Assembly: GCA_029532415.1 (NCBI GenBank)
Contig: JAQOTA010000046.1
Coordinates: 2,281,739-2,345,738, forward strand
Length of the DNA stretch: 64,000 bases
Reading direction: 5' to 3'
Source: Marasmius tenuissimus
Taxonomy: Eukaryota > Basidiomycota > Agaricomycetes > Agaricales > Marasmiaceae
The notes below the pieces were generated by a model, which ran no database searches, was not told where the DNA came from, and saw nothing but the letters and a program-made list of their open reading frames with translations. Within the stretch, counting starts at the first letter, position 1. Each line of letters begins with the position of its first letter. Below, in pieces: positions 18,056 to 64,000 of the stretch. The position numbers were made by a program, and so were the translations under genes.

Positions 18056-19761
18056 TCAGTGTTCTTGAACTGGATTAGATGCAATGACGATAGAGCCCTG
18101 ATTATCTCCGCAGATTGGAATAGGACCTAAGTCAATTCCAAGTTCAGAGAGTAGCGATCTTATCCAGGAAGCTTGATGACTGCAATCTGACAGTGCCATA
18201 TACTCAGCCTCAGTGGAAGAAAGAGCTACAGTCTTCTGGGCGTGTGATTGCCACGAGAAGATGCTGCCTGCTAACTTGAAGAAGTAGCCAGTGATCGAAC
18301 AGCATTTGATAGGATCGGCAGCCCAATCCGAGTCTGTGAATGCAAGAAGACCTCCATCAGAGTCACCATCGTAGACAAGTGAATAATCTGATGTGCCAGC
18401 AAGATAGCAGCAGATATACAGAGCTTTATCAAGGTGTTCCTTCGTTGGATTAGAAGAGAACTGGGAAAGCTTCGTAACTGCATAGGCAATATCAGGATGT
18501 GTGCCCAGCATAATGTACAGAAGCGATGCAATCACAGACTGGAATCTGGAGCGAATGGCAGGATTGACTGGACCATTGTTGGGAGTTGGCACATAGCCAG
18601 CAGGTAAGGGCGTAGGAGCTCCTTTTGCATTCTGCATCCCGAAATGTTCAAGGACTTTCTTCAGATAATCCTTCTGGTCAATCATGATCTTATTGCCTTC
18701 GCGACGAATGCTCATGCAAAGAAACTCGCTAGCATCACCCATATCGCAGCATTCCCATCGAGCCATGAACTCGGCTTTCTTCTTGTCAACAAAAGCTTTG
18801 TTAGGACCCATGAAGAGTGCATTGTCAATATATATTATCGCATACACAATTTCACCACTCTTCGGGTCTTTGCAGATGAAGAGTCCAGCATCAGAAGTTA
18901 GACGTTTGAAGCCTAGTACTTCCATGGACGAGCTGAGGGTTCGCCACCACTCAAGGGCAGCTTGCTTCAGTCCATATAATGCACGACACAGGCGTAGTAC
19001 CTTACGTTCCTGGCCCTTGACTTTGAAGCCTTCAGGTTGTTCCATGTAAATCTCCTCAACAAGATTGCCATAAAGGAAGGTGTTCTTAACATCAACGGAG
19101 GTGATGTACCAGTTCTTGAGAGCTGTGAGAGCAAGCATCATACGAACAGTCTCATAACAAACAACTGGTGAGAAGATCTCATCAAAGTCGACACCTTCGA
19201 CCTGAGAGAAACCTTTGGCAACAAGTCTTGCTTTCTTGCGACCATTCGACTTAACGTCGAAGACCCATCTATTTCTGATGGCTTTGCGACCTTTAGGCAA
19301 GTCACAGAGTTTGAAGACCTTGTGTTTACGAAGTGCCTCAAGTTCTTCGTGGCAAGCATTCTTCCATTCCTTCTGTTGCTCAACAGGCAACTTTAGAATA
19401 TCACGGAGTGTCCACTTTCTGATGTTAGAGAAATCAGGAGTATCAGACGTTGGAAGCGAATTGTGAACTGGAACGGCATTGTTCAGCAGGTAAATCACGA
19501 ATCCTACTCCCCCTTCTTGGGCAAGTCTTTCAACTACGCTTTCTTCCTCATGTGACTCAGTGCTTCCACTGGTTTCTGGAGCAGGCGGAGGCGGAAGTGG
19601 ACCAGGAATCCCCTTTTTACCACCTTTGCCTTTCCTAGATCGCAAAGAGCTAGGACGATCAACTGGATGTGTAGGTTCTTTATCTCCAGTGACGTTTCTC
19701 CAAGTATTCTTATTCTCTAAGTCGCAAATAATATCTGAGGGTTTATTTGGGTTCCGCTTCT
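18056..19761 (-). pseudogene. Copia reverse transcriptase and RNase H, cut by Ty3-B
   Basis: Minus-strand frame from the Ty3-B junction at 19762 downward. RT signatures in order: RNRWVFDVK, SVDVKNTFLYGNLVEEIYM, QPEGF, YALYGLKQA-type motif (CRALYGLKQAALEW), and YIDN where YxDD is usual (codons 18833-18822). RNase H: FTDSDWAAD and SSTEAEYMALSD, then GDNQGS. The frame is closed by TGA at 18058-18056 after NPVQEH; beyond it TKHIDIRYHYIR, the normal copia C-terminal motif, continues in register, so this TGA most likely replaced an Arg codon. The lost second Asp of the YxDD motif alone should abolish polymerase activity. Confidence 0.9.
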
Positions 19762-20477
19762 TGTTACATCCATGCCGGTTCCGGGGTTTCCGAAGGCTTC
19801 TATCCACCTTCCGGAGATTCCGATACTTGGAATCTACTTTATGTTTCTCTTCCTTCACGATCCTTTCCGGAACATGACTTTGGATTCCGACGTTGTGTCC
19901 CCGGTACTTACAGATCGGAGATACATATACACCGTTCATTTCCAAGTAGTACGTAGACTCTACATTCTGACATTCCACTTTCCATTCTATCATGACTCAT
20001 CCCGTACATTCCATTCTGACACTTCATTTCCGATTCATCTCCGACTCCGGGACTTCACCCTCCGTCTTGGTTTCCGTACTGTACATATATTCTCTCCCAC
20101 TTTTGACTCACCTTTGGTACTACGATCGCCGGAACCCCTTTGGAGGTCTCGGAGATCAACACATATATAAGCTAGGTACTTCACGACTTGTATTCCTCAG
20201 GATTAAAATCAACTTGGTTTCTGTTTTATCTCATTTGTCTCATTCTGTCTCTTTATCTCTATCTCCTCTTCATCTTTATCTTCCTTTCCCTTCCGGTCAA
20301 GGACAACTCAACTCAATGGTGTCGTTGGCGAAACCTTCGACTATTGTCCAGCCATCCGTTCGGCCTTCCGGTCGTCAGAATCTCTCTCTAACTCCGACTA
20401 GTCCATTCCGGCACGTCGGTCTCCGTCTCTTCTGCTCGGACTTCCGTCTGGGCTGTCATATCCGCACAATCCTAACA
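19762..20477 (+). repeat. 5' LTR of Ty3-B
   Basis: 716 bp, TGTTACATCC..CCTAACA. The TATA-like word ACATATATAAG at 20160-20170 is a candidate promoter. Confidence 0.95.
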
Positions 20478-20766
20478 GTATTTTAATTCTCGAACCTTGA
20501 GTTGAAATTACTGAATGTCCAGACAAGTCAATCCTGAATTCCCTGGACACTTCAACGAAGATCCACCCAACCAATTCGTAGGAAGTATCTCCGCTTCCGA
20601 ATCCATCTCAACCAACCGTTACGGTTGACGTAAAAAACGACAAGCGGTTTTCAGCAGCAGTGTCCATGCTTCCGAATATCAAATCGACGTACAATCAACT
20701 CCACGTATCGGCACACTTAATACCGTCGCACCACTTCCACCTAGCAAGCTCTGACGTCCTACAACA

Positions 20767-22456
20767 ATGGCTTTGAAATACAGGACACTTGAGGATGGCA
20801 GAACAGTCTATGTAGGGGACAAGGTACCTGAAACTTCCAGTCGTCCTCCTCCACCTCCAAAACCCGCATCCCGTCAAGTTTTCTCTCCAGCTACTATTGA
20901 AGATCCTCGAGGGGTGCTTGATCCTGCAAAACTAGCACTAGCACTTGACAAGGCTCATAACGAACCTCCTCCGAAAACAGCTAAGGGGAAAAACAAGGCC
21001 AATGAGGGGATAATTGATGACTTTACTTTCGATGCCGCCGTTGACAAAGAACATCCATCCACTCCTCCAGTTACAGCTCCAGTTATGCCCCGGGATACTG
21101 ATCTACCAACAGAAACAGCGTTACCCGAGGGATTTGATCCACACAAACAGGTCAAAGAACCCAAGGGCTCTCGAGGTGGCAGTAGGGGCGGATCCTGAGC
21201 AGGTAGTAACAAGTGTGGAGACACGGATACGGAGCCAGAAGGTGATGACTCATCCGATCACAAACCCGGTGATTCCGGACCACCCGGACCCCCTGGACCT
21301 CCTGGTGGTGGACCTCCTGGCGGAGGACCCTCCAGTGGACAAGGTGGGGGACCAGGATTCCCTAGAGGTCCCGGGAACGATCTCTACCAATTCAATATGA
21401 TGGCACTCGTACAATCCATGCTTGAGCACAACAAAATCATTGCCCAGCTCCTTGGGAAGAAGCCGGAAAAGAAGGGGAACGTCAAGGAACCTGATACCTT
21501 CAACGGAACTCAACCCGACAAACTTCTGAGCTTCATCGTCTCATGTATGATCATTTTCAATCACTGTCCCTCCGACTTTCCTACTGATGCTGATAAAATC
21601 CACTACATCATTTCCTACCTCCGTGGCATGTGCCTTGAATATTTCCAACCCGAAATCCTATCCTACGAAACCGATTCCGATCCACCCGCTTGGATGTTCA
21701 GCCTCCAAGCATTCCTGAAATGAACTTGAAATGTTCTTCGGACAGGTGGATACAATAGAGGAAGCCGAAAACAAGTTCGACAACCTCCGGATGGGAGAAG
21801 GGGAGAAAATCGGGAAGTTCGAGGTTCAGTTCAACACTCTCGCAGCCAAGATCGGTTACGGCGAGAACGCTCTCCGTCATGCCTATTATCGCGCTATGCC
21901 AAAGCATATCAAAGATTTACTTCCGAACGTTGGTGCTTGTCCTTCGACTCTCAAACAGTTGTGTGTGGTGTGCCGGGAATACGACCGGACGCACTGGGTA
22001 CGTGAAGGGGAGAAATCCCAAGAGGGCCGAGCAGTGAAGTGCGCCAACAACAACAACAACAACAATTCCAATTCCAACTCCAGATCCAACAACAACTCCG
22101 GAAATCGTTCAAACAACTCTTCTGGAGGTTCCGGTGGCTCTAACAAGAACTCCGGTAATTCTTCCGGCAACTCTTTGAGCAACTCTTCCGGCAACAAGTC
22201 CAACACCAACAACAACTCTGGGTCGAATCCGACTTCCAACATTACCAACCCGGTTGCCCAGTATCTTGGTAAGGACGGAAAGTTGAAGCCGGAAGAGAAT
22301 GAACGTCAGAAGAAGAATAACTTGTGCATGTTCTGTGGCGGAAAGCACAAGACAGATGATTGTAGGAAGCAACCTGCGGCCGGTTCTCAGGCTAAAGGTC
22401 ATGCTGCGGCTACTTCGGACGCCTCCACATCCAAACCGGATGAGGCGAAAAAATAG
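20767..22456 (+). pseudogene. Ty3-B gag
   Basis: Starts at the first good ATG after a 290-base leader (MALKYRTLEDGRTVYVGDK). The N-terminal third is Pro/Ala-rich, followed by a Gly/Pro linker, the capsid-like part (PPAWMFSLQAFLK / ELEMFFGQVDTIEEAENK), an Asn/Ser-rich linker partly coded by AAC repeats (22048-22066), and a CCHC knuckle (CMFCGGKHKTDDC). Defects: TGA at 21196 in register, and one extra base near 21721 that shifts the frame between the two capsid pieces. The frame ends at TAG 22454-22456 immediately after six A. Confidence 0.88.
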
Positions 22457-25400
22457 TCCGCAACTCCGAACCCTTGGAATGAGTTCGGAGTTGCGTTGAG
22501 CCGGATCGTTCCACCGAGGTAACCCTCAACGCAGCCACTCTTTCTTCGCCTAATTCTCTTACTCTTACTCTTTCTTCAAATATGTCTATTTCTTCTGATA
22601 CACACGAACAGTCATCTACTACTGTACCATTATCTTTTTCTGCTCTCATTGATTCCGGTTTGTCCCACTGCTTTATAGATACGAAGTATGTGGAACGTAA
22701 CCAAGTACCTACCATTCCAATACCACCTATTTCTCTTCGCCTTCTCAATGGTTCTCATGGTTCCACTATTTCACGCATGGCCTCTTTACCTATCATTTTT
22801 TCTTCTGGAGACATCCTTCCGATTGACTTTTATGTCACTCAACTTGATTCGGCTTGCAGCCTAGTTTTAGGATATAACTAGCTTCAACGCTACAACCTGT
22901 TGGTTGACTGGTCAAACAACAGTATCAAATTCCGGACACAGCCTATTCCGTCTCAGCCGGCCCTTCCGACTCACTCTTCCGAGCTCTCGGAAGTCTCTCC
23001 TCAGCCTAAATTGCCTCAGCGCAAGGCTAAGTCTCCATCTTATCCATTCGAGCCCATCTATTCCTACGCTGATCTTCTCTCAGCTCCATCTGCTATAGCT
23101 CCGAAGGTTTCCCTCATATCCGCTGGCGCTTACCTCCGAGTGAAATCCGAATCCGGTGCTCGGGCATTCACCATCCAGATGACGCTTTCCGACACGGTTT
23201 CCGGACGCGCAGCGGAACTTTCTGAGGAAGATTTGGCAATCATTCCGCCTGATTATCATGAATTCACTGACGTCTTCAGTCCAGAAATGTCGAAACAGCT
23301 TCCGTCGCATCGGGGAGAAGACGACATGAAGATTCAGTTAGAGGAAGGAATGGAACCACCTCTCAGTCCGATCTATTCCCTTTCTCAAACGGAGATCACA
23401 GCTCTCCGAGAATTCATTGATAAACATCTCCAGGCCGGGCTCATCACTCCATCCAAATCTCCTTTCGGCGCTCCCGTTTCCTTCGTCAAGAAGAAGAGTG
23501 GTGATCTTAGACTCTGTGTCGACTTCCGGGGTCTCAACAAGATTACCAAAAAGGATCGCTATCCGCTCCCTCTCATCTCCGACCTTCTCGACGCTCCGTG
23601 GAAGGCTCGGATCTATACCAAGCTTGACCTCCGTCACACTTATCACCTTGTGCGTATCACCGACAGTGATGAATACAAGACCGCTTTCCAGACCCGTTAC
23701 GGCTCATTCGAGTGGCAGGTTATGCTGGAAGGACTATCCAACGCACCTGCAGTCTTCCAACGCTTCGTCAACAACATTTTCTCCGATATGCTTGATGTTA
23801 ACGTTTTAGTTTACCTAGACAACATCCTTATCTATTCCGATGACATTTCCTCTCACAAGAAGCATGTCCGGGAGGTTCTCAAATGCCTCCGGGCAAACGG
23901 ATTGTACTGCAAAGCCTCCAAGTGCGAATTCCATACCGATACTATTGAATACCTCGGCTACATTCTTTCGCTGGATGGTCTTCGAATGGATATGTCCAAA
24001 GTGGATATCATTACCAAGTGGCCTACACCACGCAAAGTTAAGGATATTCAATCTTTCCTTGGCTTTTGCAACTTCTATCGGCGTTTTATCTTCAACTATA
24101 GCGCCATCACCGTTCCTTTAACCCGCCTCACTCGGAAAGACATTCGTTGGAACTTCAGCCCGGAATGCCAGGCTGCCTTCGATACTCTGAAAGAGGCATT
24201 CACTCATGCTCCTATCCTTACGCACTGGATTCCTGATCAAGAAATCATTGTGGAAACTGACGCATCCGACTATGCGTTGGCGGCTATCCTCTCTATCCGG
24301 ACCGACGATGGTGAGATCCATCCTATCGCATTCCACTCCCGGACTTTCACTCCTCTGGAACTTAACTACAATGTGCACGACAAAGAGCTCCTCGCCATCT
24401 TCAAGGCATTCAAACGTTGGCGGCACTATCTGGAAGGTTCCAAGAATCCAGTCAACGTGGTAACAGATCACAAAAATCTTGAATATTTCACCACTACGAA
24501 GATTCTCACCCGACGACAAGTACGCTGGTCCGAGTACCTCTCTCACTTTAACATGGTAATTCGTTTCCGTCCTGGCAAGCTCGGTGCAAAACCGGACGCT
24601 CTGACTAGACGATGGGACGTCTATCCTAAAGAGGGGGATACGCCTTACACCCATCTCAATCCACACAACTTCCGACCTGTATTCACTCAAGAACAACTCA
24701 CCGCTTCCCTCCGCGCTACATTCCTTGAAGGTCCAGTTCTTCGCACAAGCGTTATCATGGACGTCGAGCAGCTCCACGAAGACATCCGGACTGCTCAGAC
24801 AGAAGATTCCTCCCTCATTCAACACTTCTGATCCGCTTCCGACACTTCCGACGAGACTAGATGGACTGTTGACGAGACAGGTTTCCTCCGTTTAGATGAC
24901 AGAATCTACGTTCCCGAAGCCAACAACCTCCGACTTAGAATCCTCCAACAATATCATGATCATGTCATCTCTGGTCACTTTGGACCGAACCGGACTCTAG
25001 AAACCATCCGACGTCAATATACATGGCCTCTCATCCGAGAATTCGTGTGAGACTACGTTCACTCCTGTGTAACTTGTGCACGGAATAAGACTCCACAACG
25101 TCGGCCATACAGACTTCTACGACCTCTTCTGGTTCCAGCACAACCATGGGACTCTATATCCATGGACTTCATCGAGGAACTTCCGAACTCTAACGGTTTC
25201 AATTCCATCCTAGTTATCATCGACCGCGCTTCGAAACAAGCAATCTTCATTCCTACAGACATCCATATCACTTCCAAACAACTCGCTCGACTCTTCGTTA
25301 TCCATGTGTTCTCTAAGCATGGAGTTCCTCAGCACGTCACCTCCGACCGTGGTTCCGAATTTGTTTCCCACTTCATGCGTTCCCTTAGGAAAGCCCTTGA

Positions 25401-26244
25401 CATGAATCTTCATTACACTTCCGGTTATCACCCTTCCACCGACGGACAGACTGAACGGGCAAATCAGACACTTGAGCAGTATATCCAAGTCTACTGTTCT
25501 TACCAGCAGGACAACTGGGATGAACTCCTGCCTCTTGCCGAGTTCGCTTACAACAATGCTCCAAACGCTTCCACTGGAATCTCACCATTCTTTGCCAACA
25601 AGGGTTATCATCCGAACATCACCATCCACCCGGAACGAGACATGGCTTCCGCCCGTGCACAAGAGTTTGTAGTTGATCTAGATGAGCTCCATTCCATGCT
25701 CCGAGAAGAACTTACTCACGCCCAAACCCGTATGAAGGAACAGAAGGATCAACATCTCCAGCCTCAGCCGGAATGGAAGATTGGCGATAAAGTTATGGTC
25801 TCCGCTAAGTACATTAAAACGACCAGACCTACTGCTAAAATCTCCGAGAAATTCCTAGGTCCTTTCGAGATCATTGCTACACCATCTCCAGTTACTTATA
25901 CCCTCCGACTTCTGACTGAATTCAGTACCATCCATCCAACTTTCCACATTTCCCAACTCGAATCCATCCTTCCGAACACCATTCCGAATTGTGTCCAGCC
26001 TCCTCCGGGTCCCGTCGAACTCGACACCGGAGAAGAAGATCATTACAAGATTTCCGAAATCCTAGACTCCAAGATCGACCGTCGTTTCAAGTGCAAGCTA
26101 CAATATCGCATCCGATGGCTTGGATACGAAGGCACCGACGAGGAGTTTTCTTGGGTCATGGCAGACAACTTCAACGCTCCGGACCTCCTCCGAGCATTCC
26201 ACGAGCGCTATCCTCATAAACCTGGACCTATTAATTCTCTCTAA
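22447..26244 (+). pseudogene. Ty3-B pol, minus-one register to gag, with four stops and YLDN
   Basis: One register without frameshift. Protease (LIDSGLSHCFID near 22660), RT with [12 protein letters not shown] (AAC at 23821-23823 where GAC or GAT is expected), RNase H (ETDASDYALAAILS; VTDHKNLEYF), integrase zinc finger around 24960-25090, core (SMDFIEELP, TSDRGSEFVS, QTERANQTLEQY), and a chromodomain near the end (YRIRWLGYEGTDEEFSW). Stops: TGA 22480, TAG 22879 (Trp expected, GYN*LQRYN), TGA 24829 and TGA 25048 (Arg expected before DYVHSC). A 643-residue frame, 22900-24831, is unbroken here but is broken in the right-arm copy. Confidence 0.92.
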
Positions 26245-26388
26245 GTCCTATCCATCATTCTGTTTCCATTTCCGATTATCTTACGATTACTCATGATTCC
26301 GAGAAAGGCCTTCCGGCCGGGCGACGTTTCAAGATTATTCTACCAGTACAAAAAACGAGAAAATTCCGGATTCCACACGTTCCATCCA

Positions 26389-27461
26389 TCACTCTTCCAT
26401 CCTATCCTTATCTGCTTCATCTTCTTCCTCTTCCGGGATCGTTTCCGCGCTCTTCACCTTCTTCCGGAGTGTCTTCGGGGATTGAGATGCTGGCCTCTTG
26501 CTAGGCCGTGACGACAGTCCTTCCTCCTGGTCCTCTTCCCCTTCCTCTTCCGCTTTGTCCTCACCCTCATCCGAGCTGTCCAGGAAATTGACACCATGAA
26601 CACTAAGCAGAAGTTGTATTCTGCGGTTGATCTGCCGCAGATCCTTCTCTACCTCTGGTGCCAAGTGTACTTCCTTCCTGCCCGCAGACTTCTGTTTCCC
26701 TTCTGAGTTCTTGGACTTCATCGAACCCGCATCAGACCTCGTTCTGTCTCCACTTCCGTCTGGGAACACACACTTTGCTTTCTTCTTGTGGCATCGGAAG
26801 CATGTGTTGGTCGGACCACAGAAGTTGGTTCCAGCCATCACATTCCGGCGACATTCCGCATTCACAACGGAACATTTCTTGCAGGCTATAAAAAGTTAGA
26901 AGAAATCGGATTCCGGACATGTTGAACTTACCAATCGGAAGAAGCGGTCCCGTTCCGACCTCCTCCACATCCGTAACCTTTCCGCTGCTCTGTTTCGCCT
27001 TCGCCTTCCGTTTAGCTCCCGAGGTTTCCGACGTTTTTTTTCCGGCGACGAACCCGGACTGGAAAATCATTTGTTGATGAGGTGTCAGTGTGGGGTAAAA
27101 CTAAAAGAAGTTAAAAAATTCGGAAGGAGAAAACATCTGACAAGTCAGACACACCAATTCCCAGTCCATATCCATGGACTGTCTGTCAGCGTTGGAGAAT
27201 GTATATTCGAGAGGTTTGGACTTCACCTCTGTTTCTGGAACTGCCATCTTCGCTCGTACTTCCTCCTCCTCAGCCTCCCGTTGCTTCCGCCTCGTTTCCA
27301 TCCAACCATCCCTATCCTTCCGCCTCCTCTTCCAGATACTGAGCCAAGTATTCCGCGAGTTTTGGTTTCTTGGTGATATATTCCGGAATCACTTCATCCA
27401 GATGCGGAGTGAGGAAGAGAAGATCGGTGGGAGTTGGTGAACAAGAGGGTGTAGGTGACAT
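26389..27461 (-). CDS. Antisense Cys-rich basic/acidic protein carried inside Ty3-B
   Basis: Between pol and the 3' LTR, on the minus strand. A likely start is ATG 27461-27459 (MSPTPSCSPTPTDLLFL). A coiled-coil-like Glu/Arg-rich part follows (RRKQREAEEEEVRAK), then an exon ending ..VGTGPLLPI at a GTAAGT donor (near 26934), and a last exon from about 26886 to 26389. Spliced there, it gives CKKCSVVNAEC, then CFRCHKKKAKC: two Cys clusters spaced like a fungal zinc-cluster domain, followed by a basic stretch and an acidic tail (EEEGEEDQEEG). The early part appears to need one frame correction near 27310 in both arms, so the 5' structure is uncertain. A DNA-binding role is an inference from the Cys pattern only. 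Confidence 0.55.
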
Positions 27462-27700
27462 TTTTGGAGTTGGGAAAACAAAGTTGAGATTCGCTTGGTG
27501 CGCTTCTTATATATCTTTTTTCTATTTGTTCCTTGTTTGGATTTCCAGAATATTCTTTCATGTTCCAGAACGTTCTATCGACTCATCAAGTTTCTATTGT
27601 TTTACGTCTTCTTTCCAAATGCTTCCGAACTTTTACGTCTTACAATTTTTTTCTTACTTCCTCCGCGGCTCTCAAGGCGAGAGCCTTAAGAGGGGAATAC

Positions 27701-28416
27701 TGTTACATCCATGCCGGTTCCGGGGTTTCCGAAGGCTTCTATCCACCTTCCGGAGATTCCGATACTTGGAATCTACTTTATGTTTCTCTTCCTTCACGAT
27801 CCTTTCCGGAACATGACTTTGGATTCCGACGTTGTGTCCCTGGTACTTACAGATCGGAGATACATATACACCGTTCATTTCCAAGTAGTACGTAGACTCT
27901 ACATTCCGACATTCCGCTTTCCATTCTATCATGACTCATCCCGTACATTCCATTCTGACACTTCATTTCCGATTCATCTCCGACTCCGGGACTTTACCCT
28001 CCATCTTGGATTCCGTACTGTACATACATTCTCTCCCGCTTTTGACTCACCTTTGGTACTACGATCGCCGGAACCCCTTTGGAGGTCTCGGAGATCAACA
28101 CATATATAAGCTAGGTACTTCACGACTTGTATTCCTCAGAATTAAAATCAACTTGGTTTCCGTTTTATCTCATTTGTCTCATTCTGTCTCTTTATCTCTA
28201 TCTCCTCTTCATCTTTGTCTTCCTTTCCCTTCCAGTCAAGGACAACTCAACTCAATGGTGTCATTGGCAAAACCTTTGACTATTGTCCAGCCATCTGTTC
28301 GGCCTTCCGGTCGTCGGAATCTCTCTCTAACTCCAACTAGTCCATTCCGGCACGTCGGTCTCCGTCTCTTCTGCTCGGACTTCCGTCTGGGCTGTCATAT
28401 CCGCACAATCCTAACA
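27701..28416 (+). repeat. 3' LTR of Ty3-B
   Basis: 716 bp, preceded by the purine run AAGAGGGGAA (27688-27697), the likely polypurine tract. Confidence 0.95.
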
Positions 28417-28421
28417 CTTCT

Positions 28422-30626: not shown

Positions 30627-31021
30627 CATTGAGTACATCCCACAAAGTGGGTCGAAATAGCATTGCAAAATTTTACAAGTGATACCAGCTCACTACGACT
30701 ACCGCGCGCACTACTGATACCAACTAGTTGAGAGCAGCGCTGTAGGTTTGCATCAGCTTGGGAAAACAGGTCAAGGTATGGTACTTGCCTGTCATTGTGG
30801 AACGATCCAAGAGAGACATCATCCGGGATGTCCTCTACTCCTGCAGCTTCGGCAATATCGTTGTCAACATCGTTACCGAATAGAGAAGTCATATTGTCCA
30901 TACCATCATCAGATCCCCAGTCCATCTCTACATCTTCATCAGGATCAACACTGCGAGAGCGTTTGGAAGAAGTAGGAGAAGGATGTCCGGTTCCTTCATC
31001 TTCTGAATCGTCCTCCAGAAC

Positions 31022-32383: not shown

Positions 32384-32524
32384 GGTAGTAAGAGGTTGAG
32401 AGGTTTGGTGTTGGATCTAGAAAAGACAGCATCAGCATGCGTCTAATCAACACAGGGAGCTGCCATCAAGGCGCTATGCTCAACGGGGAGCATTGGATCC
32501 TTGAGATCCGATGTCGTCAAAGGA

Positions 32525-32765: not shown

Positions 32766-32770
32766 AGCGC

Positions 32771-38939: not shown

Positions 38940-38959
38940 GAATCTGCATCTACTGCAGT

Positions 38960-41752: not shown

Positions 41753-41753
41753 C
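41753..41753. other. Palindrome centre with one-base loop
   Basis: CCGTAGT, then C at 41753, then ACTACGG. The symmetry continues outward without a spacer. There is no unique sequence between the arms. Confidence 0.97.
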
Positions 41754-50868: not shown

Positions 50869-51249
50869 TGTTGAATCCGTGGACTATAATAAGATCCCAG
50901 TATATCCAAAGTCCGGTTCATACTTCCCATCATTGTATTATGCGGGACAATGCATTCACTATTGTTCTATACTTCATTGTTCACTATGCTCATATGTACA
51001 ATTTCTATTGTCGTCCTTATATGGTAACTCTATTGTATCTTCATGTATATAAGCTTGTAGTTCTCTACCTGAATCTACAGTGTGCTTGAGCTATGGCATT
51101 GATGTATATCCTTTGACGACATCGGATCTCAAGGATCCAATGCTCCCCGTTGAGCATAGCGCCTTGATGGCAGCTCCCTGTGTTGATTAGACGCATGCTG
51201 ATGCTGTCTTTTCTAGATCCAACACCAAACCTCTCAACCTCTTACTACC

Positions 51250-52704: not shown

Positions 52705-55208
52705 AGATGGACTGGGGATCTGATGATGGTATGGACAATATGACTTCTCTATTCGGTAACGATGTTGACAACGATATTGCCGAAGCTGCAGGAGTAGAGG
52801 ACATCCCGGATGATGTCTCTCTTGGATCGTTCCACAATGACAGGCAAGTACCATACCTTGACCTGTTTTCCCAAGCTGATGCAAACCTACAGCGCTGCTC
52901 TCAACTAGTTGGTATCAGTAGTGCGCGCGGTAGTCGTAGTGAGCTGGTATCACTTGTAAAATTTTGCAATGCTATTTCGACCCACTTTGTGGGATGTACT
53001 CAATGTAAGGGAAAGAAAAGTGTGAAAAATGCACAGGTTGGCTCCTTGATTCTGGTGCCTCCTCACATTTCACGAACAATATGAATGACTTTGCTGAATA
53101 TGAATCGCTTGATGGTCCCATCGTAAATACTGCGAACAAGGCAACCCTATACAGATCAAGGGTAAAGGCACTGTCTTCATTAAGCATAACATTGAAGGAC
53201 ATGATGGGAAACTTACTGAGCGTGTTTCACGTCTCTATCCTGTCTATTACATACCTCAATTGGACATACATCTACTATCAATGGGAGAATTCCTTCAAGA
53301 TGGTCTTTCAATTCGTGGAAATGCGAAGAAGTTAGCCTTCTACTCATCACAGCGACAACAGTTGCTTGTTTCCTACCCTCATATGCCTGGTCAAACCATT
53401 TATTGGGTACACTTGTGGAAGGCATCTGCTGAGGTTTTAATGGCCAAGTCGGTTGTTTACAACGTCGACTACGATATTGAGCACAGATGCCTTGGGCATC
53501 CATCGGATAAAGCCTTGAACAAAGCTTGGAAACATACGCAAGGTTTCCCACTTGACCTTAAGATGCCTACTAAGAAGACACCTCTGTGTCGTGGTTGTGC
53601 TGTGATGAGCCAGCATAGTCAAACTGCACAGTGGGTTATAACGTCCTAAACCTCACCTTGGTTAGATAGCTTGTAGAGCTAGTAGTTAGAATGCTTTGAG
53701 ATGCTTGAGAGGTGATAATCAAGTAGATTGTCCTAAGGCTTAAGGCCTTGGAATACCAGCTTTTATACACAAGTTTCAGTACATGTAAGAGTCATTACCA
53801 TCGTATGAAACTACTACTAGAAGTAGGTATTTAGCCGTATAGTCATAATACTAATGAGTGTGTCTGCAGTCCTATTGGACTGCTTAGCTACTAAAGTCCG
53901 TTGTGCCTCGCACTAAGGACTATGAGCATCATACCTGATGCAAGTACTACGTAGTGAGTATCTACAGTGTCATTTGTGAAGCAATAGCTACGTAGATTCT
54001 TCTTGCATGAGAGCGCAAGTGTTCATAGAGGTGTAGCTCTATAAATAGTGTGTAACGCGTAAATAACACGTCAACAATGTATCACATGATATCCATCATG
54101 TTCAACATGCTGAAGGCAAGATGCATGAGAAATCGTTCCCCAACTCTACAATGAGAGCTTCTAAACCGTTTGAACACATACATTCGGATTTGAAGTCGTA
54201 CCCGGCTGAATCGTATCACTGGTACAAGTACTACATCTCTTTTCTCGATGACTGCACATCCTACATTTGGACCTCCAAGCTCAAGACGAAAGACAAGGCA
54301 GTACCCGCTTTGAGGGACTTCCTTACTATGGTCAAGACGCAATTCATGCTGTTGTCAAGACCTGGATGTCCGATGAAGGGGGAGAGTACAAAGGAGATAA
54401 GTTCGATGCAGTACTGAAAGAGTATGGGATTCAAAGGGATCAAAGCATACCGTATACACCACAACAAAACGGTCGTGCTGAATGATTCAACAGGACTATT
54501 CATGAAAAGGCTGAAGCTCTTTGCTTTGAAGCTTGTATGCCTCAGTTCTGGTGGGAATTCTGCCATGTGCACGCTGTCCACCTCTACAATCACACTCCTG
54601 TGCAATGTTTGAGCTGGTGAACTCCATTCGAAATGCTTTACGGCGAAGCACCTGATGTTTCACATCTCTGAGTATTGGGTTGTGCAGCCTACATCTTTAT
54701 TCCTGAAGATCATAGGAAGAATAAGCTCGCTCCTCGTAGTGAGTTGATGACTTTCATCGGCTACCAGGATGGGATGAAAGGCTTCCTGTTCATGCGAAGT
54801 AATAAATCTGTATTCAAAGGTAGCACTGCACTATTCGATGAAACACTATACAATAAGTGTCCTGATGCCAAAACTTGTGGCTTCACACCTGTTGGTAGTG
54901 AACCATTTACTTTGGGTGAAAATCCCAACATTCCTTCGGAAGATGGAAGATGAAGACTCTGATGATGACGGTTTTTGATGCTCCATTACCAGATCTCAGA
55001 CGTCGCTCTGAACCTTCTAAAAGATCAGAACCTCAGGTTGACAAACCTGCAGGTGGCCCTGCGCCAGGGGATGTGCCACTCCCTCAATCTGGTCCTCCGA
55101 CGCCTCCAGGCGAACCCGCCATTCCTCTGCCTGCACCAGCAGCGGATGGTCCATGCCGGTCTTTGAGGCAGCAGAAGGGTACAACACAACCTGGTAATAT
55201 ATTTGGGG
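52705..55208 (+). pseudogene. Mirror copy of copia protease-integrase region
   Basis: The same motifs and the same TGA stops as at 28422-30626 occur. Additional frameshifts near 53140 (one G lost) and near 54345 (bases lost beside CAATTCATGC) break frames that are open on the left. Confidence 0.82.
53632..54076 (-). mobile_element. Mirror copy of the probable solo LTR in copia
   Basis: 445 bp, TGGGTTATAACG..CGTCAACA; one base shorter than the left copy. No target duplication found. Confidence 0.5.
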
Positions 55209-55213
55209 AGAAG

Positions 55214-55927
55214 TGTTAGGATTGTGCGGATATGACAGCCCAGACGGAAGTCCGAGCAGAAGAGACGGAGACCGACGTGCCGGAATGGACTAGTTGGAGT
55301 TAGAGAGAGATTCCGACGACCGGAAGGCCGAACAGATGGCTGGACAATAGTCAAAGGTTTTGCCAATGACACCATTGAGTTGAGTTGTCCTTGACTGGAA
55401 GGGAAAGGAAGACAAAGATGAAGAGGAGATAGAGATAAAGAGACAGAATGAGACAAATGAGATAAAACGGAAACCAAGTTGATTTTAATTCTGAGGAATA
55501 CAAGTCGTGAAGTACCTAGCTTATATATGTGTTGATCTCCGAGACCTCCAAGGGGTTCCGGCGATCGTAGTACCAAAGGTGAGTCAAAAGCGGGAGAGAA
55601 TGTATGTACAGTACGGAATCCAAGATGGAGGGTAAAGTCCCGGAGTCGGAGATGAATCGGAAATGAAGTGTCAGATGGAATGTACGGGATGAGTCATGAT
55701 AGAATGGAAAGCGGAATGTCGGAATGTAGAGTCTACGTACTACTTGGAAATGAACGGTGTATATGTATCTCCGATCTGTAAGTACCAGGGACACAACGTC
55801 GGAATCCAAAGTCATGTTCCGGAAAGGATCGTGAAGGAAGAGAAACATAAAGTAGATTCCAAGTATCGGAATCTCCGGAAGGTGGATAGAAGCCTTCGGA
55901 AACCCCGGAACCGGCATGGATGTAACA
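55214..55927 (-). repeat. 3' LTR of the mirrored Ty3-B
   Basis: Shorter than its left counterpart by two bases; one is a T3 to T2 contraction at 55550-55551 (A2 on the plus strand). Confidence 0.93.
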
Positions 55928-56165
55928 GTATTCCCCTCTTAAGGCTCTCGCCTTGAGAGCCGCGGAGGAAGTAAGAAAAAATTGTAAGACGTAAAAGTTC
56001 GGAAGCATTTGGAAAGAAGACGTAAAACAATAGAAACTTGATGAGTCGATAGAACGTTCTGGAACATGAAAGAATATTCTGGAAATCCAAACAAGGAACA
56101 AATAGAAAAAAGATATATAAGAAGCGCACCAAGCGAATCTCAACTTTGTTTTCCCAACTCCAAAA

Positions 56166-57236
56166 ATGTCACCTACACCCTCTTGTTCACCAACTCCCAC
56201 CGATCTTCTCTTCCTCACTCCGCATCTGGATGAAGTGATTCCGGAATATATCACCAAGAACCAAACTCGCGGAATACTTGGCTCAGTATCTGGAAGAGGA
56301 GGCGGAAGGATAGGGATGGTTGGATGGAAACGAGGCGGAAGCAACGGGAGGCTGAGGAGGAGGAAGTACGAGCGAAGATGGCAGTTCCAGAAACAGAGGT
56401 GAAGTCCAAACCTCTCGAATATACATTCTCCAACGCTGACAGACAGTCCATGGATATGGACTGGGAATTGGTGTGTCTGACTTGTCAGATGTTTTCTCCT
56501 TCCGAATTTTTTAACTTCTTTTAGTTTTACCCCACACTGACACCTCATCAACAAATGATTTTCCAGTCCGGGTTCGTCGCCGGAAAAAAAACGTCGGAAA
56601 CCTCGGGAGCTAAACGGAAGGCGAAGGCGAAACAGAGCAGCGGAAAGGTTACGGATGTGGAGGAGGTCGGAACGGGACCGCTTCTTCCGATTGGTAAGTT
56701 CAACATGTCCGGAATCCGATTTCTTCTAACTTTTTATAGCCTGCAAGAAATGTTCCGTTGTGAATGCGGAATGTCGCCGGAATGTGATGGCTGGAACCAA
56801 CTTCTGTGGTCCGACCAACACATGCTTCCGATGCCACAAGAAGAAAGCAAAGTGTGTGTTCCCAGACGGAAGTGGAGACAGAACGAGGTCTGATGCGGGT
56901 TCGATGAAGTCCAAGAACTCAGAAGGGAAACAGAAGTCTGCGGGCAGGAAGGAAGTACACTTGGCACCAGAGGTAGAGAAGGATCTGCGGCAGATCAACC
57001 GCAGAATACAACTTCTGCTTAGTGTTCATGGTGTCAATTTCCTGGACAGCTCGGATGAGGGTGAGGACAAAGCGGAAGAGGAAGGGGAAGAGGACCAGGA
57101 GGAAGGACTGTCGTCACGGCCTAGCAAGAGGCCAGCATCTCAATCCCCGAAGACACTCCGGAAGAAGGTGAAGAGCGCGGAAACGATCCCGGAAGAGGAA
57201 GAAGATGAAGCAGATAAGGATAGGATGGAAGAGTGA
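56166..57236 (+). pseudogene. Mirror copy of the antisense Cys-rich gene of Ty3-B
   Basis: Starts at ATG 56166. Two one-base losses at 56259-56265 (A3 to A2, A4 to A3) shift the first exon. The splice donor at about 56693 and the Cys-cluster exon up to 57236 are unchanged from the left arm. Confidence 0.5.
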
Positions 57237-57380
57237 TGGATGGAACGTGTGGAATCCGGAATTTTCTCGTTTTTTGTACTGGTAGAATAATCTTGAAACG
57301 TCGCCCGGCCGGAAGGCCTTTCTCGGAATCATGAGTAATCGTAAGATAATCGGAAATGGAAACAGAATGATGGATAGGAC

Positions 57381-60300
57381 TTAGAGAGAATTAATAGGTC
57401 CAGGTTTATGAGGATAGCGCTCGTGGAATGCTCGGAGGAGGTCCGGAGCGTTGAAGTTGTCTGCCATGACCCAAGAAAACTCCTCGTCGGTGCCTTCGTA
57501 TCCAAGCCATCGGATGCGATATTGTAGCTTGCACTTGAAACGACGGTCGATCTTGGAGTCTAGGATTTCGGAAATCTTGTAATGATCTTCTTCTCCGGTG
57601 TCGAGTTCGACGGGACCCGGAGGAGGCTGGACACAATTCGGAATGGTGTTCGGAAGGATGGATTCGAGTTGGGAAATGTGGAAAGTTGGATGGATGGTAC
57701 TGAATTCAGTCAGAAGTCGGAGGGTATAAGTAACTGGAGATGGTGTAGCAATGATCTCGAAAGGACCTAGGAATTTCTCGGAGATTTTAGCAGTAGGTCT
57801 GGTCGTTTTAATGTACTTAGCGGAGACCATAACTTTATCGCCAATCTTCCATTCCGGCTGAGGCTGGAGATGTTGATCCTTCTGTTCCTTCATACGGGTT
57901 TGGGCGTGAGTAAGTTCTTCTCGGAGCATGGAATGAGCTCATCTAGATCAACTACAAACTCTTGTGCACGGGCGGAAGCCATGTCTCGTTCCGGGTGGAT
58001 GGTGATGTTCGGATGATAACCCTTGTTGGCAAAGAATGGTGAGATTCCAGTGGAAGCGTTTGGAGCATTGTTGTAAGCGAACTCGGCAAGAGGCAGGAGT
58101 TCATCCCAGTTGTCCTGCTGGTAAGAACAGTAGACTTGGATATACTGCTCAAGTGTCTGATTTGCCCGTTCAGTCTGTCCGTCGGTGGAAGGGTGATAAC
58201 CGGAAGTGTAATGAAGATTCATGTCAAGGGCTTTCCTAAGGGAACGCATGAAGTGGGAAACAAATTCGGAACCACGGTCGGAGGTGACGTGCTGAGGAAC
58301 TCCATGCTTAGAGAACACATGGATAACGAAGAGTCGAGCGAGTTGTTTGGAAGTGATATGGATGTCTGTAGGAATGAAGATTGCTTGTTTCGAAGCGCGG
58401 TCGATGATAACTAGGATGGAATTGAAACCGTTAGAGTTCGGAAGTTCCTCGATGAAGTCCATGGATATAGAGTCCCATGGTTGTGCTGGAACCAGAAGAG
58501 GTCGTAGAAGTCTGTATGGCCGACGTTGTGGAGTCTTATTCCGTGCACAAGTTACACAGGAGTGAACGTAGTCTCACACGAATTCTCGGATGAGAGGCCA
58601 TGTATATTGACGTCGGATGGTTTCTAGAGTCCGGTTCGGTCCAAAGTGACCAGAGATGACATGATCATGATATTGTTGGAGGATTCTAAGTCGGAGGTTG
58701 TTGGCTTCGGGAACGTAGATTCTGTCATCTAAACGGAGGAACCCTGTCTCGTCAACAGTCCATCTAGTCTCGTCGGAAGTGTCGGAAGCGGATCAGAAGT
58801 GTTGAATGAGGGAGGAATCTTCTGTCTGAGCAGTCCGGATGTCTTCGTGGAGCTGCTCGACGTCCATGATAACGCTTGTGCGAAGAACTGGACCTTCAAG
58901 GAATGTAGCGCGGAGGGAAGCGGTGAGTTGTTCTTGAGTGAATACAGGTCGGAAGTTGTGTGGATTGAGATGGGTGTAAGGCGTATCCCCCTCTTTAGGA
59001 TAGACGTCCCATCGTCTAGTCAGAGCGTCCGGTTTGCACCGAGCTTGCCAGGACGGAAACGAATTACCATGTTAAAGTGAGAGAGGTACTCGGACCAGCG
59101 TACTTGTCGTCGGGTGAGAATCTTCGTAGTGGTGAAATATTCAAGATTTTTGTGATCTGTTACCACGTTGACTGGATTCTTGGAACCTTCCAGATAGTGC
59201 CGCCAACGTTTGAATGCCTTGAAGATGGCGAGGAGCTCTTTGTCGTGCACATTGTAGTTAAGTTCCAGAGGAGTGAAAGTCCGGGAGTGGAATGCGATAG
59301 GATGGATCTCACCATCGTCGGTCCGGATAGAGAGGATAGCCGCCAACGCATAGTCGGATGCGTCAGTTTCCACAATGATTTCTTGATCAGGAATCCAGTG
59401 CGTAAGGATAGGAGCATGAGTGAATGCCTCTTTCAGAGTATCGAAGGCAGCCTGGCATTCCGGGCTGAAGTTCCAACGAATGTCTTTCCGAGTGAGGCGG
59501 GTTAAAGGAACGGTGATGGCGCTATAGTTGAAGATAAAACGCCGATAGAAGTTGCAAAAGCCAGGAAAGATTGAATATCCTTAACTTTGCGTGGTGTAGG
59601 CCACTTGGTAATGATATCCACTTTGGACATATCCATTCGAAGACCATCCAGCGAAAGAATGTAGCCGAGGTATTCAATAGTATCGGTATGGAATTCGCAC
59701 TTGGAGGCTTTGCAGTACAATCCGTTTGCCCGGAGGCATTTGAGAACCTCCCGGACATGCTTCTTGTGAGAGGAAATGTCATCGGAATAGATAAGGATGT
59801 TGTCTAGGTAAACTAAAACGTTAACATCAAGCATATCGGAGAAAATGTTGTTGACGAAGCGTTGGAAGACTGCAGGTGCGTTGGATAGTCCTTCCAGCAT
59901 AACCTGCCACTCGAATGAGCCGTAACGGGTCTGGAAAGCGGTCTTGTATTCATCACTGTCGGTGATACGCACAAGGTGATAAGTGTGACGGAGGTCAAGC
60001 TTGGTATAGATCCGAGCCTTCCACGGAGCGTCGAGAAGGTCGGAGATGAGAGGGAGCGGATAGCGATCCTTTTGGTAATCTTGTTGAGACCCCGGAAGTC
60101 GACACAGAGTCTAAGATCACCACTCTTCTTCTTGACGAAGGAAACGGGAGCGCCGAAAGGAGATTTGATGGAGTGATGAGCCCGGCCTGGAGATGTTTAT
60201 CAATGAATTCTCGAGAGCTGTGATCTCCGTTTGAGAAAGGGAATAGATCGGACTGAGAGGTGGTTCCATTCCTTCCTCTAACTGAATCTTCATGTCGTCT

Positions 60301-61161
60301 TCTCCCCGATGCGACGGAAGCTGTTTCGACATTTCTGGACTGAAGACGTCAGTGAATTCATGATAATCAGGCGGAATGATTGCCAAATCTTCCTCAGAAA
60401 GTTCCGCTGCGCGTCCGGAAACCGTGTCGGAAAGCGTCATCTGGATGGTGAATGCCCGAGCACCGGATTCGGATTTCACTCGGAGGTAAGCGCCAGCGGA
60501 TATGAGGGAAACCTTCGGAGCTATAGCAGATGGAGCTGAGAGAAGATCAGCGTAGGAATAGATGGGCTCGAATGGATAAGATGGAGACTTAGCCTTGCGC
60601 TGAGGCAATTTAGGCTGAGGAGAGACTTCCGAGAGCTCGGAAGAGTGAGTCGGAAGGGCCGGCTGAGACGGAATAGGCTGTGTCCGGAATTTGATACTGT
60701 TGTTTGACCAGTCAACCAACAGGTTGTAGCGTTGAAGCTAGTTATATCCTAAAACTAGGCTGCAAGCCGAATCAAGTTGAGTGACATAAAAGTCAATCGG
60801 AAGGATGTCTCCAGAAGAAAAAATGATAGGTAAAGAGGCCATGCGTGAAATAGTGGAACCATGAGAACCATTGAGAAGGCGAAGAGAAATAGGTGGTATT
60901 GGAATGGTAGGTACTTGTTACGTTCCACATACTTCGTATCTATAAAGCAGTGGGACAAACCGGAATCAATGAGAGCAGAAAAAGATAATGGTACAGTAGT
61001 AGATGACTGTTCGTGTGTATCAGAAGAAATAGACATATTTGAAGAAAGAGTAAGAGTAAGAGAATTAGGCGAAGAAAGAGTGGCTGCGTTGAGGGTTACC
61101 TCGGTGGAACGATCCGGCTCAACGCAACTCCGAACTCATTCCAAGGGTTCGGAGTTGCGGA
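57381..61161 (-). pseudogene. Mirror copy of Ty3-B pol
   Basis: Same motifs, the same four stops and the same YLDN as on the left. In addition, one-base losses near 57936, 59032, 59560, 60090 and 60170, and another near 60925, break the long RT frame into several pieces. Confidence 0.9.
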
Positions 61162-62848
61162 CTATTTTTTCGCCTCATCCGGTTTGGATGTGGAGGCGTC
61201 CGAAGTAGCCGCAGCATGACCTTTAGCCTGAGAACCGGCCGCAGGTTGCTTCCTACAATCATCTGTCTTGTGCTTTCCGCCACAGAACATGCACAAGTTA
61301 TTCTTCTTCTGACGTTCATTCTCTTCCGGCTTCAACTTTCCGTCCTTACCAAGATACTGGGCAACCGGGTTGGTAATGTTGGAAGTCGGATTCGACCCAG
61401 AGTTGTTGTTGGTGTTGGACTTGTTGCCGGAAGAGTTGCTCAAAGAGTTGCCGGAAGAATTACCGGAGTTCTTGTTAGAGCCACCGAACCTCCAGAAGAG
61501 TTGTTTGAACGATTTCCGGAGTTGTTGTTGGATCTGGAGTTGGAATTGGAATTGTTGTTGTTGTTGTTGTTGGCGCACTTCACTGCTCGGCCCTCTTGGG
61601 ATTTCTCCCCTTCACGTACCCAGTGCGTCCGGTCGTATTCCCGGCACACCACACACAACTGTTTGAGAGTCGAAGGACAAGCACCAACGTTCGGAAGTAA
61701 ATCTTTGATATGCTTTGGCATAGCGCGATAATAGGCATGACGGAGAGCGTTCTCGCCGTAACCGATCTTGGCTGCGAGAGTGTTGAACTGAACCTCGAAC
61801 TTCCCGATTTTCTCCCCTTCTCCCATCCGGAGGTTGTCGAACTTGTTTTCGGCTTCCTCTATTGTATCCACCTGTCCGAAGAACATTTCAAGTTCATTTC
61901 AGGAATGCTTGGAGGCTGAACATCCAAGCGGGTGGATCGGAATCGGTTTCGTAGGATAGGATTTCGGGTTGGAAATATTCAAGGCACATGCCACGGAGGT
62001 AGGAAATGATGTAGTGGATTTTATCAGCATCAGTAGGAAAGTCGGAGGGACAGTGATTGAAAATGATCATACATGAGACGATGAAGCTCAGAAGTTTGTC
62101 GGGTTGAGTTCCGTTGAAGGTATCAGGTTCCTTGACGTTCCCCTTCTTTTCCGGCTTCTTCCCAAGGAGCTGGGCAATGATTTTGTTGTGCTCAAGCATG
62201 GATTGTACGAGTGCCATCATATTGAATTGGTAGAGATCGTTCCCGGGACCTCTAGGGAATCCTGGTCCCCCACCTTGTCCACTGGAGGTCCTCCGCCAGG
62301 AGGTCCACCACCAGGAGGTCCAGGGGTCCGGGTGGTCCGGAATCACCGGGTTTGTGATCGGATGAGTCATCACCTTCTGGCTCCGTATCCGTGTCTCCAC
62401 ACTTGTTACTACCTGCTCAGGATCCGCCCCTACTGCCACCTCGAGAGCCCTTGGGTTCTTTGACCTGTTTGTGTGGATCAAATCCCTCGGGTAACGCTGT
62501 TTCTGTTGGTAGATCAGTATCCCGGGGCATAACTGGAGCTGTAACTGGAGGAGTGGATGGATGTTCTTTGTCAACGGCGGCATCGAAAGTAAAGTCATCA
62601 ATTATCCCCTCATTGGCCTTGTTTTTCCCCTTAGCTGTTTTCGGAGGAGGTTCGTTATGAGCCTTGTCAAGTGCTAGTGCTAGTTTTGCAGGATCAAGCA
62701 CCCCTCGAGGATCTTCAATAGTAGCTGGAGAGAAAACTTGACGGGATGCGGGTTTTGGAGGTGGAGGAGGACGACTGGAAGTTTCAGGTACCTTGTCCCC
62801 TACATAGACTGTTCTGCCATCCTCAAGTGTCCTGTATTTCAAAGCCAT
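61162..62848 (-). pseudogene. Mirror copy of Ty3-B gag
   Basis: ATG at 62848. The left-arm TGA and the extra base at the capsid junction are both present. A further CC to C loss near 61486 shifts the Asn/Ser-rich linker, and small losses in the Gly/Pro linker near 62300 remove the left-arm register. Confidence 0.85.
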
Positions 62849-63137
62849 TGTTGTAGGACGTCAGAGCTTGCTAGGTGGAAGTGGTGCGACGGTATTAAGT
62901 GTGCCGATACGTGGAGTTGATTGTACGTCGATTTGATATTCGGAAGCATGGACACTGCTGCTGAAAACCGCTTGTCGTTTTTTACGTCAACCGTAACGGT
63001 TGGTTGAGATGGATTCGGAAGCGGAGATACTTCCTACGAATTGGTTGGGTGGATCTTCGTTGAAGTGTCCAGGGAATTCAGGATTGACTTGTCTGGACAT
63101 TCAGTAATTTCAACTCAAGGTTCGAGAATTAAAATAC

Positions 63138-63850
63138 TGTTAGGATTGTGCGGATATGACAGCCCAGACGGAAGTCCGAGCAGAAGAGACGGAGACCGAC
63201 GTGCCGGAATGGACTAGTCGGAGTTAGAGAGAGATTCTGACGACCGGAAGGCCGAACGGATGGCTGGACAATAGTCGAAGGTTTCGCCAACGACACCATT
63301 GAGTTGAGTTGTCCTTGACCGAAGGGAAAGGAAGATAAAGATGAGAGGAGATAGAGATAAAGAGACAGAATGAGACAAATGAGATAAAACAGAAACCAAG
63401 TTGATTTTAATCCTGAGGAATACAAGTCGTGAAGTACCTAGCTTATATATGTGTTGATCTCCGAGACCTCCAAGGGGTTCCGGCGATCGTAGTACCAAAG
63501 GTGAGTCAAAAGTGGGAGAGAATATATGTACAGTACGGAAACCAAGACGGAGGGTGAAGTCCCGGAGTCGGAGATGAATCGGAAATGAAGTGTCAGAATG
63601 GAATGTACGGGATGAGTCATGATAGAATGGAAAGTGGAATGTCAGAATGTAGAGTCTACGTACTACTTGGAAATGAACGGTGTATATGTATCTCCGATCT
63701 GTAAGTACCGGGGACACAACGTCGGAATCCAAAGTCATGTTCCGGAAAGGATCGTGAAGGAAGAGAAACATAAAGTAGATTCCAAGTATCGGAATCTCCG
63801 GAAGGTGGATAGAAGCCTTCGGAAACCCCGGAACCGGCATGGATGTAACA
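63138..63850 (-). repeat. 5' LTR of the mirrored Ty3-B
   Basis: 713 bp; three single-base losses relative to the left copy, near 63320, 63346 and 63470, each in a run of two or three identical bases. Confidence 0.93.
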
Positions 63851-64000
63851 AGAAGCGGAACCCAAATAAAACCCAGATATTATTTGCGACTTAGAGAATA
63901 AGAATACTTGGAGAAACGTCACTGGAGATAAAGAACCTACACATCCAGTTGATCGTCCTAGCTCTTTGCGATCTAGGAAAGGCAAAGGTGGTAAAAAGGG

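What the first reader, a model, noticed from the sequence alone, without database searches (positions are those of the whole stretch)
19506..64000. Giant palindrome: two arms of at least 22.2 kb with a one-base centre at 41753
Everything right of 41753 is the reverse complement of what lies left of it, through two Ty3-B LTR pairs, a copia element and single-copy genes. The centre is CCGTAGT-C-ACTACGG with no spacer. Known large eukaryotic palindromes usually keep a unique spacer, and spacer-free joins of this kind are a classic product of fold-back (snap-back) template switching or of a misjoined haplotype. If real, it would be a striking hairpin-forming locus in a fungal nucleus, possibly from sister-chromatid fusion.
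Basis: seen in the sequence. Interest (0 to 1): 0.9.

Follow-up and report, generated by a model that had tools for sequence, protein, structure and literature searches.

The report
Fold-back artefact at a contig end
The last 22 kb of this fungal contig repeat the preceding 22 kb backwards, most likely because a sequencing read ran down one DNA strand and back along the other, so it is probably an assembly error and not a real chromosome structure.

Summary
The palindrome is in the letters: one-base centre at 41753, left arm 19611-41752, right arm 41754-64000, about 98.4% identical. The window's last base is also the contig's last (C30). Outside one 3.7-kb block the arms differ by 12 substitutions but 36 small indels; 31 of 35 one-base indels are bases missing from the right arm, 30 of these 31 in runs of identical bases, at even density from the centre on. 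At the 7 of 36 sites where a third copy was in hand, it supports the left arm 7 of 7 times. So the right arm carries sequencing error. The block is 6.7% diverged without a third long copy, as if from the other haplotype. The centre cuts a decayed gene copy at an intron/exon border. Best explanation: a fold-back long read extended the contig past its true end (0.83). No raw reads were available; a real end fusion or hairpin is not excluded. Against me: no contig carrying the left arm across the centre was found, and none of 29 other ends probed folds back. Organism: Marasmius tenuissimus.

The parts
19611..41752 (+). Left arm (22,142 bp), continuous with the rest of the 2.35-Mb contig; taken as the genuine sequence
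   Evidence: third copies support its letters at 7 of 7 testable indel sites
41753..41753 (.). One-base centre (C30:2323491), no spacer; perfect palindrome for 243 bases each side
41754..64000 (-). Right arm (22,247 bp): reverse complement of the left arm, ends at the contig end, enriched in losses of single bases in runs; read as the second half of a fold-back read
34116..37826 (+). Left-arm version of the divergent block (247 substitutions, 6.7%, sharp edges), containing a 7TM-like gene (35461-36852, PM082_019070)
45675..49519 (-). Right-arm version of the divergent block (limits worked out from the indels): probably the other haplotype's allele; no third long copy in the assembly (45680-49390 was searched)
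41231..41751 (+). Decayed third local copy of the same gene family, cut by the centre just after the intron that precedes the 36161 exon in the intact copy

Best explanation
An assembly artefact made by a fold-back long read. A DNA molecule covering the left arm was read along one strand and then straight back along the other, through a library-preparation hairpin or a missed or absent adapter. The assembler took this as sequence beyond 41753, extended contig C30 by the return strand, and stopped where the read stopped, about 22 kb further. SHOWN: spacer-free palindrome; right arm ends with the contig; error-type differences that sit in the right arm and start at the centre; a block that looks allelic; a gene copy cut at the centre. 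INFERRED: that one read (or very few) caused it, that it came from the other nucleus or haplotype, that error correction brought it to about 99.8% outside the block, and that the chromosome continues beyond 41753 in some other way.
For: Right arm ends exactly at the contig end, whose last 300 bases show no telomere repeat. Outside the block: 12 substitutions against 36 indels; 31 of 35 one-base indels are losses in the right arm (binomial p 3e-6), with no departure from even spread from the centre on (KS p 0.54, n 32); 30 of the 31 lie in runs of two or more identical bases (18 in runs of three or more), where 45% of bases lie (p 9e-10). Third copies in hand cover 7 of the 36 indel sites, all right-arm losses, and favour the left-arm letters 7 of 7 times, 11 of 11 copies. 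Left-arm retroelement frames of 649 and 397 aa are broken in the right arm into pieces of at most 206 and 227 aa. Substitutions sit in one sharp block without a third long copy. The centre interrupts a gene copy whose homology runs to 2 bases from the centre. Fold-back reads were about 0.55-0.6% of nanopore genomic reads and typically fewer than half of flagged artefact reads had more than 11 bp between halves (PMC12870357, parts 1-3 of 5 read). Nanopore quality falls, with missed bases, from the junction of inverted duplicates onward (PMC7229812, parts 1-2 of 4 read).
Against: No raw reads, depth or platform were available. A right-arm loss rate of about 0.17% is too low for one raw read, so correction or several reads must be assumed. 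No other contig holds the left-arm sequence near the centre, although an overlap with another contig end was indicated for 11 of 29 other ends probed: if reads crossed 41753 into true continuing sequence, such an overlap would be expected. The missing second half of the cut gene copy was not recognised elsewhere. None of 29 other contig ends showed a terminal inverted copy in the capped lists, so this is not a frequent fault in the assembly. Two frames are longer in the right arm than in the left: 495 against 464 aa (copia gag) and 330 against at most 158 aa. Lower quality at a contig end is also expected from thinning coverage.
Confidence: 0.83

Rival explanations
1. A real inverted duplication made by U-type fusion of sister (or homologous) chromatids at a broken end in at least one nucleus of the culture; the assembly caught the first 22 kb of the second chromatid.
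For: Spacer-free centre, as the U-type model predicts (PMC3907307, passages); only 12 substitutions over 18 kb outside the block, so a recent event would fit; no contig found that continues the left arm normally.
Against: Sisters would be identical, but 3.7 kb differs by 6.7%, so homologues would be needed; the fused chromatid should continue far beyond 22 kb, yet the contig stops with the palindrome; right-arm base losses start at the centre and show no trend toward the end and are errors where testable; a dicentric chromosome would be unstable (established knowledge).
Confidence: 0.07
2. Haplotype misjoin: contigs of the two haplotypes were joined head to head at 41753 without a fold-back read.
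For: The divergent block looks like two alleles in one contig; phase switches and misjoins occur in dikaryon assemblies (PMC8957140, passages).
Against: Assemblers join on overlap; two copies of the same stretch have no head-to-head overlap unless some read is itself palindromic, so this reduces to the fold-back read (inference). The arms have no substitution for the first 3.9 kb around the centre apart from one adjacent pair at 2.4 kb.
Confidence: 0.06
3. The chromosome really ends at 41753 as a covalently closed hairpin (a broken, unprotected end sealed on itself), so every read reaching it comes back along the other strand.
For: Would give a spacer-free terminal palindrome and no continuing contig. 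In a Borrelia long-read assembly, hairpin telomeres were sought as palindromes at contig ends (PMC6945570, passages).
Against: Both arms would be the two strands of one duplex and should be equally accurate and free of allelic differences; neither holds. The end cuts a gene copy, no terminal inverted copy was seen at 29 other ends, and one of 30 left ends carries CCCTAA-type telomere repeats in its first 500 bases, so ordinary telomeres exist here.
Confidence: 0.03
4. An old palindrome kept alike by gene conversion between its arms, with one block that escaped.
For: Gene conversion between palindrome arms is known from the human Y chromosome (as cited in PMC5490193, passages).
Against: Outside the block the differences are mostly single-base losses in runs, biased to one arm, and errors where testable; the palindrome ends exactly at the contig end; the centre cuts a gene copy.
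Confidence: 0.01

Closest known systems
Fold-back read artefact (Heinz, Meyerson and Li 2026, PMC12870357)
   Same: Second half on the opposite strand of the same place, often with no sequence in between
   Different: Described there in raw reads; here seen only as a contig end, so read-level criteria could not be applied
Inverted-duplicate quality loss in nanopore reads (Spealman et al. 2020, PMC7229812)
   Same: Missed bases begin at the junction and last through the second arm
   Different: Here a residue of about 0.17%, not the raw effect; the platform of this assembly is unknown
Palindromic reads from missed or missing adapters or amplification (Pacasus, PMC6218980, passages)
   Same: [quoted passage not shown] they attribute inverted duplications in an assembly to amplification palindromes
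   Different: No evidence here on amplification or platform
DSB fold-back inverted duplication (PMC3907307, passages)
   Same: Terminal inverted duplication
   Different: Those keep a single-copy spacer of 766-70,466 bp with short inverted homology; here there is no spacer, and no inverted partner of the last 5-9 bases within 300 bp
Hairpin telomeres of Borrelia (PMC6945570, passages)
   Same: Palindromes at contig ends of a long-read assembly
   Different: There at ends of linear replicons with a partly recognised motif; here one end, inside a decayed gene copy

Membership tests
Fold-back read artefact | Second half lies on the opposite strand within 200 bp of the turn | tested here: met
   One-base centre
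Fold-back read artefact | Turn near the middle of the READ, other reads at the site being non-palindromic | not testable with these tools
   No raw reads held
Fold-back read artefact | Return half less accurate than the outgoing half | tested here: met
   31 of 35 one-base indels outside the block are losses in the right arm; third copies favour the left arm at 7 of 7 testable sites of 36. This feature follows from PMC7229812 for nanopore data; the platform here is unknown
Fold-back read artefact | The true sequence continues beyond the turn elsewhere | tested here: inconclusive
   Gene copy is cut at the centre, but no continuation was recognised
U-type sister-chromatid fusion | No spacer | tested here: met
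U-type sister-chromatid fusion | Arms identical at origin | tested here: not met
   247 substitutions in a 3.7-kb block; fusion of homologues would relax this
U-type sister-chromatid fusion | Duplication continues until a break or telomere | tested here: inconclusive
   Contig stops with the arm, no telomere repeat in its last 300 bases; an assembly break could hide it
DSB fold-back inverted duplication | Single-copy spacer with inverted microhomology at its edge | tested here: not met
   No spacer; no inverted partner of the last 5-9 bases within 300 bp
Covalently closed hairpin end | Both arms are strands of one duplex, so no allelic difference | tested here: not met
   Divergent block; haplotype mixing in the assembly could soften this
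Covalently closed hairpin end | Closed end in native DNA | not testable with these tools
   Needs DNA

The most novel reading that the evidence does not exclude
In one nucleus of a Marasmius dikaryon, chromosome C30 truly lost its end at position 2,323,491 and the break was sealed, either by fusing with the homologous chromatid of the other haplotype (which would explain the allelic block) or as a hairpin that turns into an inverted dimer at each replication. This would be a live breakage-fusion intermediate kept in culture. That the sequenced strain is a dikaryon is itself inferred from the block alone.
Probability: 0.08. Interest if true: 0.7.

Novelty: not a real feature. Interest (0 to 1): 0.12.

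Why it matters
If it is an artefact, genes and retroelements in 41754-64000 are counted twice in this genome, some right-arm copies with false frameshifts, and a public 2.35-Mb contig should be trimmed at 41753. The diagnostic used here needs no raw reads: indels far outnumbering substitutions, biased to one arm, polarised by third copies, starting at the centre, at a contig end. It can screen other reported giant palindromes. If it were real, it would be a chromosome-end fusion caught in a mushroom culture.

Tried and rejected
Snap-back at a short inverted repeat: no inverted partner of the left arm's last 5 to 9 bases (centre base included) within 300 bp. Ancient palindrome under gene conversion: rejected on the kind and bias of differences. 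Finding the true continuation through the cut gene's second half: the DNA search found only the known local copies; the protein search gave 63 matches at E up to 10 on several contigs, none identifiable as the missing half. A protein-database search named the organism; it gives no genome context. Testing whether terminal fold-backs are common in this assembly: 29 left ends probed with one 80-base piece each, 0 of 29 with an inverted copy in the same contig among the rows shown (40 of 108 and 40 of 51 candidates were scored, so this is not exhaustive; one telomeric end, C64, was left out; left ends of C21-C60 and right ends other than C30's were not examined).

Literature: searches are listings (20 of 24 listed; 10 of 79; 10 of 21,276; 6 of 7). 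Opened from them: PMC7229812 and PMC12870357 in parts; PMC3907307, PMC5490193, PMC6218980, PMC6945570, PMC8957140, PMC11053350, PMC12915580, PMC8581569 and PMC7593179 in passages only (the last held nothing on this question). None of the 3 papers was opened. Sequencing details of this Marasmius assembly were not found in the passages read. I recall, from no call, that early Adineta palindromes were later doubted; this was not checked.
Full report
WHAT IS THERE. The window is C30:2281739-2345738 of a 71.06-Mb, 70-contig assembly. Contig C30 has 2,345,738 bases, so the window's last base is the contig's last base. A protein-database search with a gene of the left arm returned as best hit, 99% identical, PM082_019070 of Marasmius tenuissimus on a contig of 2,345,738 bases; the organism is therefore this agaric (taxonomy). 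The palindrome is centred on 41753. Its left arm is 19611-41752 and its right arm 41754-64000; BLAST gives 98.48% over 17,776 bp and 98.44% over 4,415 bp. The first 243 bases on each side are perfect.

THE ARMS DIFFER IN TWO WAYS. An arm-to-arm alignment has 259 substitutions and 56 gaps; one gap, at the outer end of the left arm, is an edge effect and was dropped before counting. First, 247 substitutions and 19 of the gaps lie in one block 3,927-7,637 bases from the centre (6.7% substitutions), with sharp edges; transitions over the whole alignment run in both directions. The right-arm version of this block has no third long copy in the assembly, only its left-arm partner, relatives of up to 89% and short pieces of up to 98% (40 of 55 candidates scored). 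That looks like two alleles. Second, in the remaining 18.3 kb there are 12 substitutions and 36 indels. Of the 12, seven cluster at 9,672-10,015, two are adjacent at 2,384-2,385 and three are single. Of 35 one-base indels, 31 are bases absent from the right arm and 4 are bases absent from the left arm (p 3e-6); the 32 right-arm losses (31 of one base, one of two) do not depart from even spread along the arm (KS p 0.54), and five lie within 600 bases of the centre. Thirty of the 31 are in runs of two or more identical bases, which hold 45% of the arm's bases (p 9e-10). Mutation does not make three indels per substitution, nearly all of them single-base losses in one arm; consensus error does (established knowledge).

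WHICH ARM IS WRONG. Seven of the 36 indel sites, all right-arm losses, lie in repeats of which another copy was in hand (window left of the arms and 36 fetched stretches). The other copies match the left-arm letters better at 7 of 7 sites, 11 of 11 copies. The frames mostly agree: left-arm frames of 649 and 397 aa fall into pieces of at most 206 and 227 aa in the right arm. Two frames go the other way: a copia gag frame is 464 aa left and 495 aa right, and a 330-aa right-arm frame has only pieces of up to 158 aa in the left arm.

WHERE THE CENTRE FALLS. About 5 kb to the left lies a gene of a local 7TM-like family (35461-36852, annotated as PM082_019070). A decayed copy of the same gene starts near 41.2 kb and is cut by the centre. 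Its alignment to the intact copy runs through the intron to the acceptor AG at 41751, two bases from the centre, and the following exon is missing (translations with stops). The centre is therefore a break in sequence that once went on. A DNA search with the later part of the intact gene (871 bases) found the two arms, one paralogue at C30:2266454 and the first part of the central copy in both arms, but no further place. A protein search with 87 residues gave 63 matches at E up to 10, on several contigs, none identifiable as the missing half.

THE ASSEMBLY. Of 30 contig left ends in hand, one (C64) carries CCCTAA-type telomere repeats in its first 500 bases; the last 300 bases of C30 show none. 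For the other 29 ends I searched one 80-base piece each. By my reading of those tables, 11 of 29 (C1, C2, C3, C6, C9, C10, C12, C13, C14, C17, C61) have a copy of 98-100% identity (C6: 95%) lying 14-42 kb from another contig's end in the orientation of an unjoined overlap; reciprocal hits support this for C2/C3 and C6/C61, while for the others it rests on one probe. Overlapping, unjoined ends of read length are thus probably common here. No end of the 29 had an inverted copy in its own contig among the rows shown, so the terminal fold-back at C30 is the only one seen. The DNA nearest the centre (37400-41753) occurs full-length only as the two arms. Two further stretches of the arms match many other places at 91-95% over 0.7-1.1 kb because they include dispersed repeats, whereas the two arms match each other at 100% in rounded identity.

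EXPLANATION. A read that passes along one strand and returns on the other gives a spacer-free palindrome, and a contig extended by it ends where the read ends. Both hold. The literature gives rates and a signature. Fold-backs were about 0.55-0.6% of nanopore genomic reads and typically fewer than half of flagged artefact reads had more than 11 bp between halves; the three PacBio samples showed no systemic fold-backs (PMC12870357, parts 1-3 of 5 read). Nanopore reads through inverted duplicates lose quality and miss bases from the junction on (PMC7229812, parts 1-2 of 4 read). Palindromic reads also arise from missed adapters and amplification, and amplification palindromes put inverted duplications into assemblies (PMC6218980, passages). 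The allelic block fits a read from the other haplotype set against a left arm built from the first. That the rest of the arm shows almost no allelic difference requires either that the haplotypes are nearly identical there or that correction against other reads overwrote small differences; I cannot tell which.

AGAINST IT. The right arm is about 99.8% accurate outside the block, so it is not one raw read. No contig was found that carries the left arm across the centre into other sequence, though such overlaps are indicated at 11 of 29 other ends. That leaves room for a true DNA end or a coverage gap at 41753. The platform of the assembly was not found in the papers searched. The error bias could partly be ordinary contig-end quality, though it begins at the centre and shows no trend toward the end.

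RIVALS AND KNOWN KINDS. Repair of a broken end by fold-back leaves a spacer of 766-70,466 bp with inverted microhomology (PMC3907307, passages); here there is neither. U-type fusion predicts no spacer but identical arms continuing further; a fusion between homologues would allow the allelic block, and this is the best real reading left. A hairpin-capped end would look the same in an assembly (compare Borrelia replicons, PMC6945570, passages), but its arms should not differ by alleles or in quality. Verdict: most likely not a real feature; confidence 0.83, and raw reads would settle it.

Noticed in passing
34116-37826 and 45675-49519: A 3.7-kb block with 6.7% divergence between two apparent alleles and almost none in the flanks, holding a 7TM-like gene (PM082_019070). 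Sharp edges suggest introgression, conversion or long-kept alleles.
   Followed up: partly
C30:2221901-2318207 and clusters on C1, C2, C23, C61: The gene at 35461-36852 belongs to an expanded family in clusters; the three unspliced window frames over it or its mirror copy that were scanned had no Pfam match (the spliced protein was not scanned). Database relatives named are in Marasmius and Moniliophthora.
   Followed up: partly
G000, left ends of C1, C2, C3, C6, C9, C10, C12, C13, C14, C17, C61: Single 80-base probes suggest unjoined overlaps of 14-42 kb with other contig ends (11 of 29 left ends), so terminal duplications may inflate this assembly.
   Followed up: partly
L007:6986-7631 and 7776-8421: A 646-bp inverted repeat, 99.5% identical, with a spacer of 144 bp, in the same contig about 115 kb left of its end.
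   Followed up: no
28081 and 20142 (left arm) against their mirror places: The right arm lacks a base in the same run at the same place in both LTR copies (contexts), which points to a systematic reading error and not to chance.
   Followed up: partly
1328-2051, 19762-20477, 27701-28416: LTR-like repeats of about 715 bp, 95-97% alike, flanking Ty3-type domains.
   Followed up: no
41561-42217: A 218-aa open frame across the palindrome centre; probably an accident of the junction, no Pfam match. A gene caller might annotate it.
   Followed up: partly
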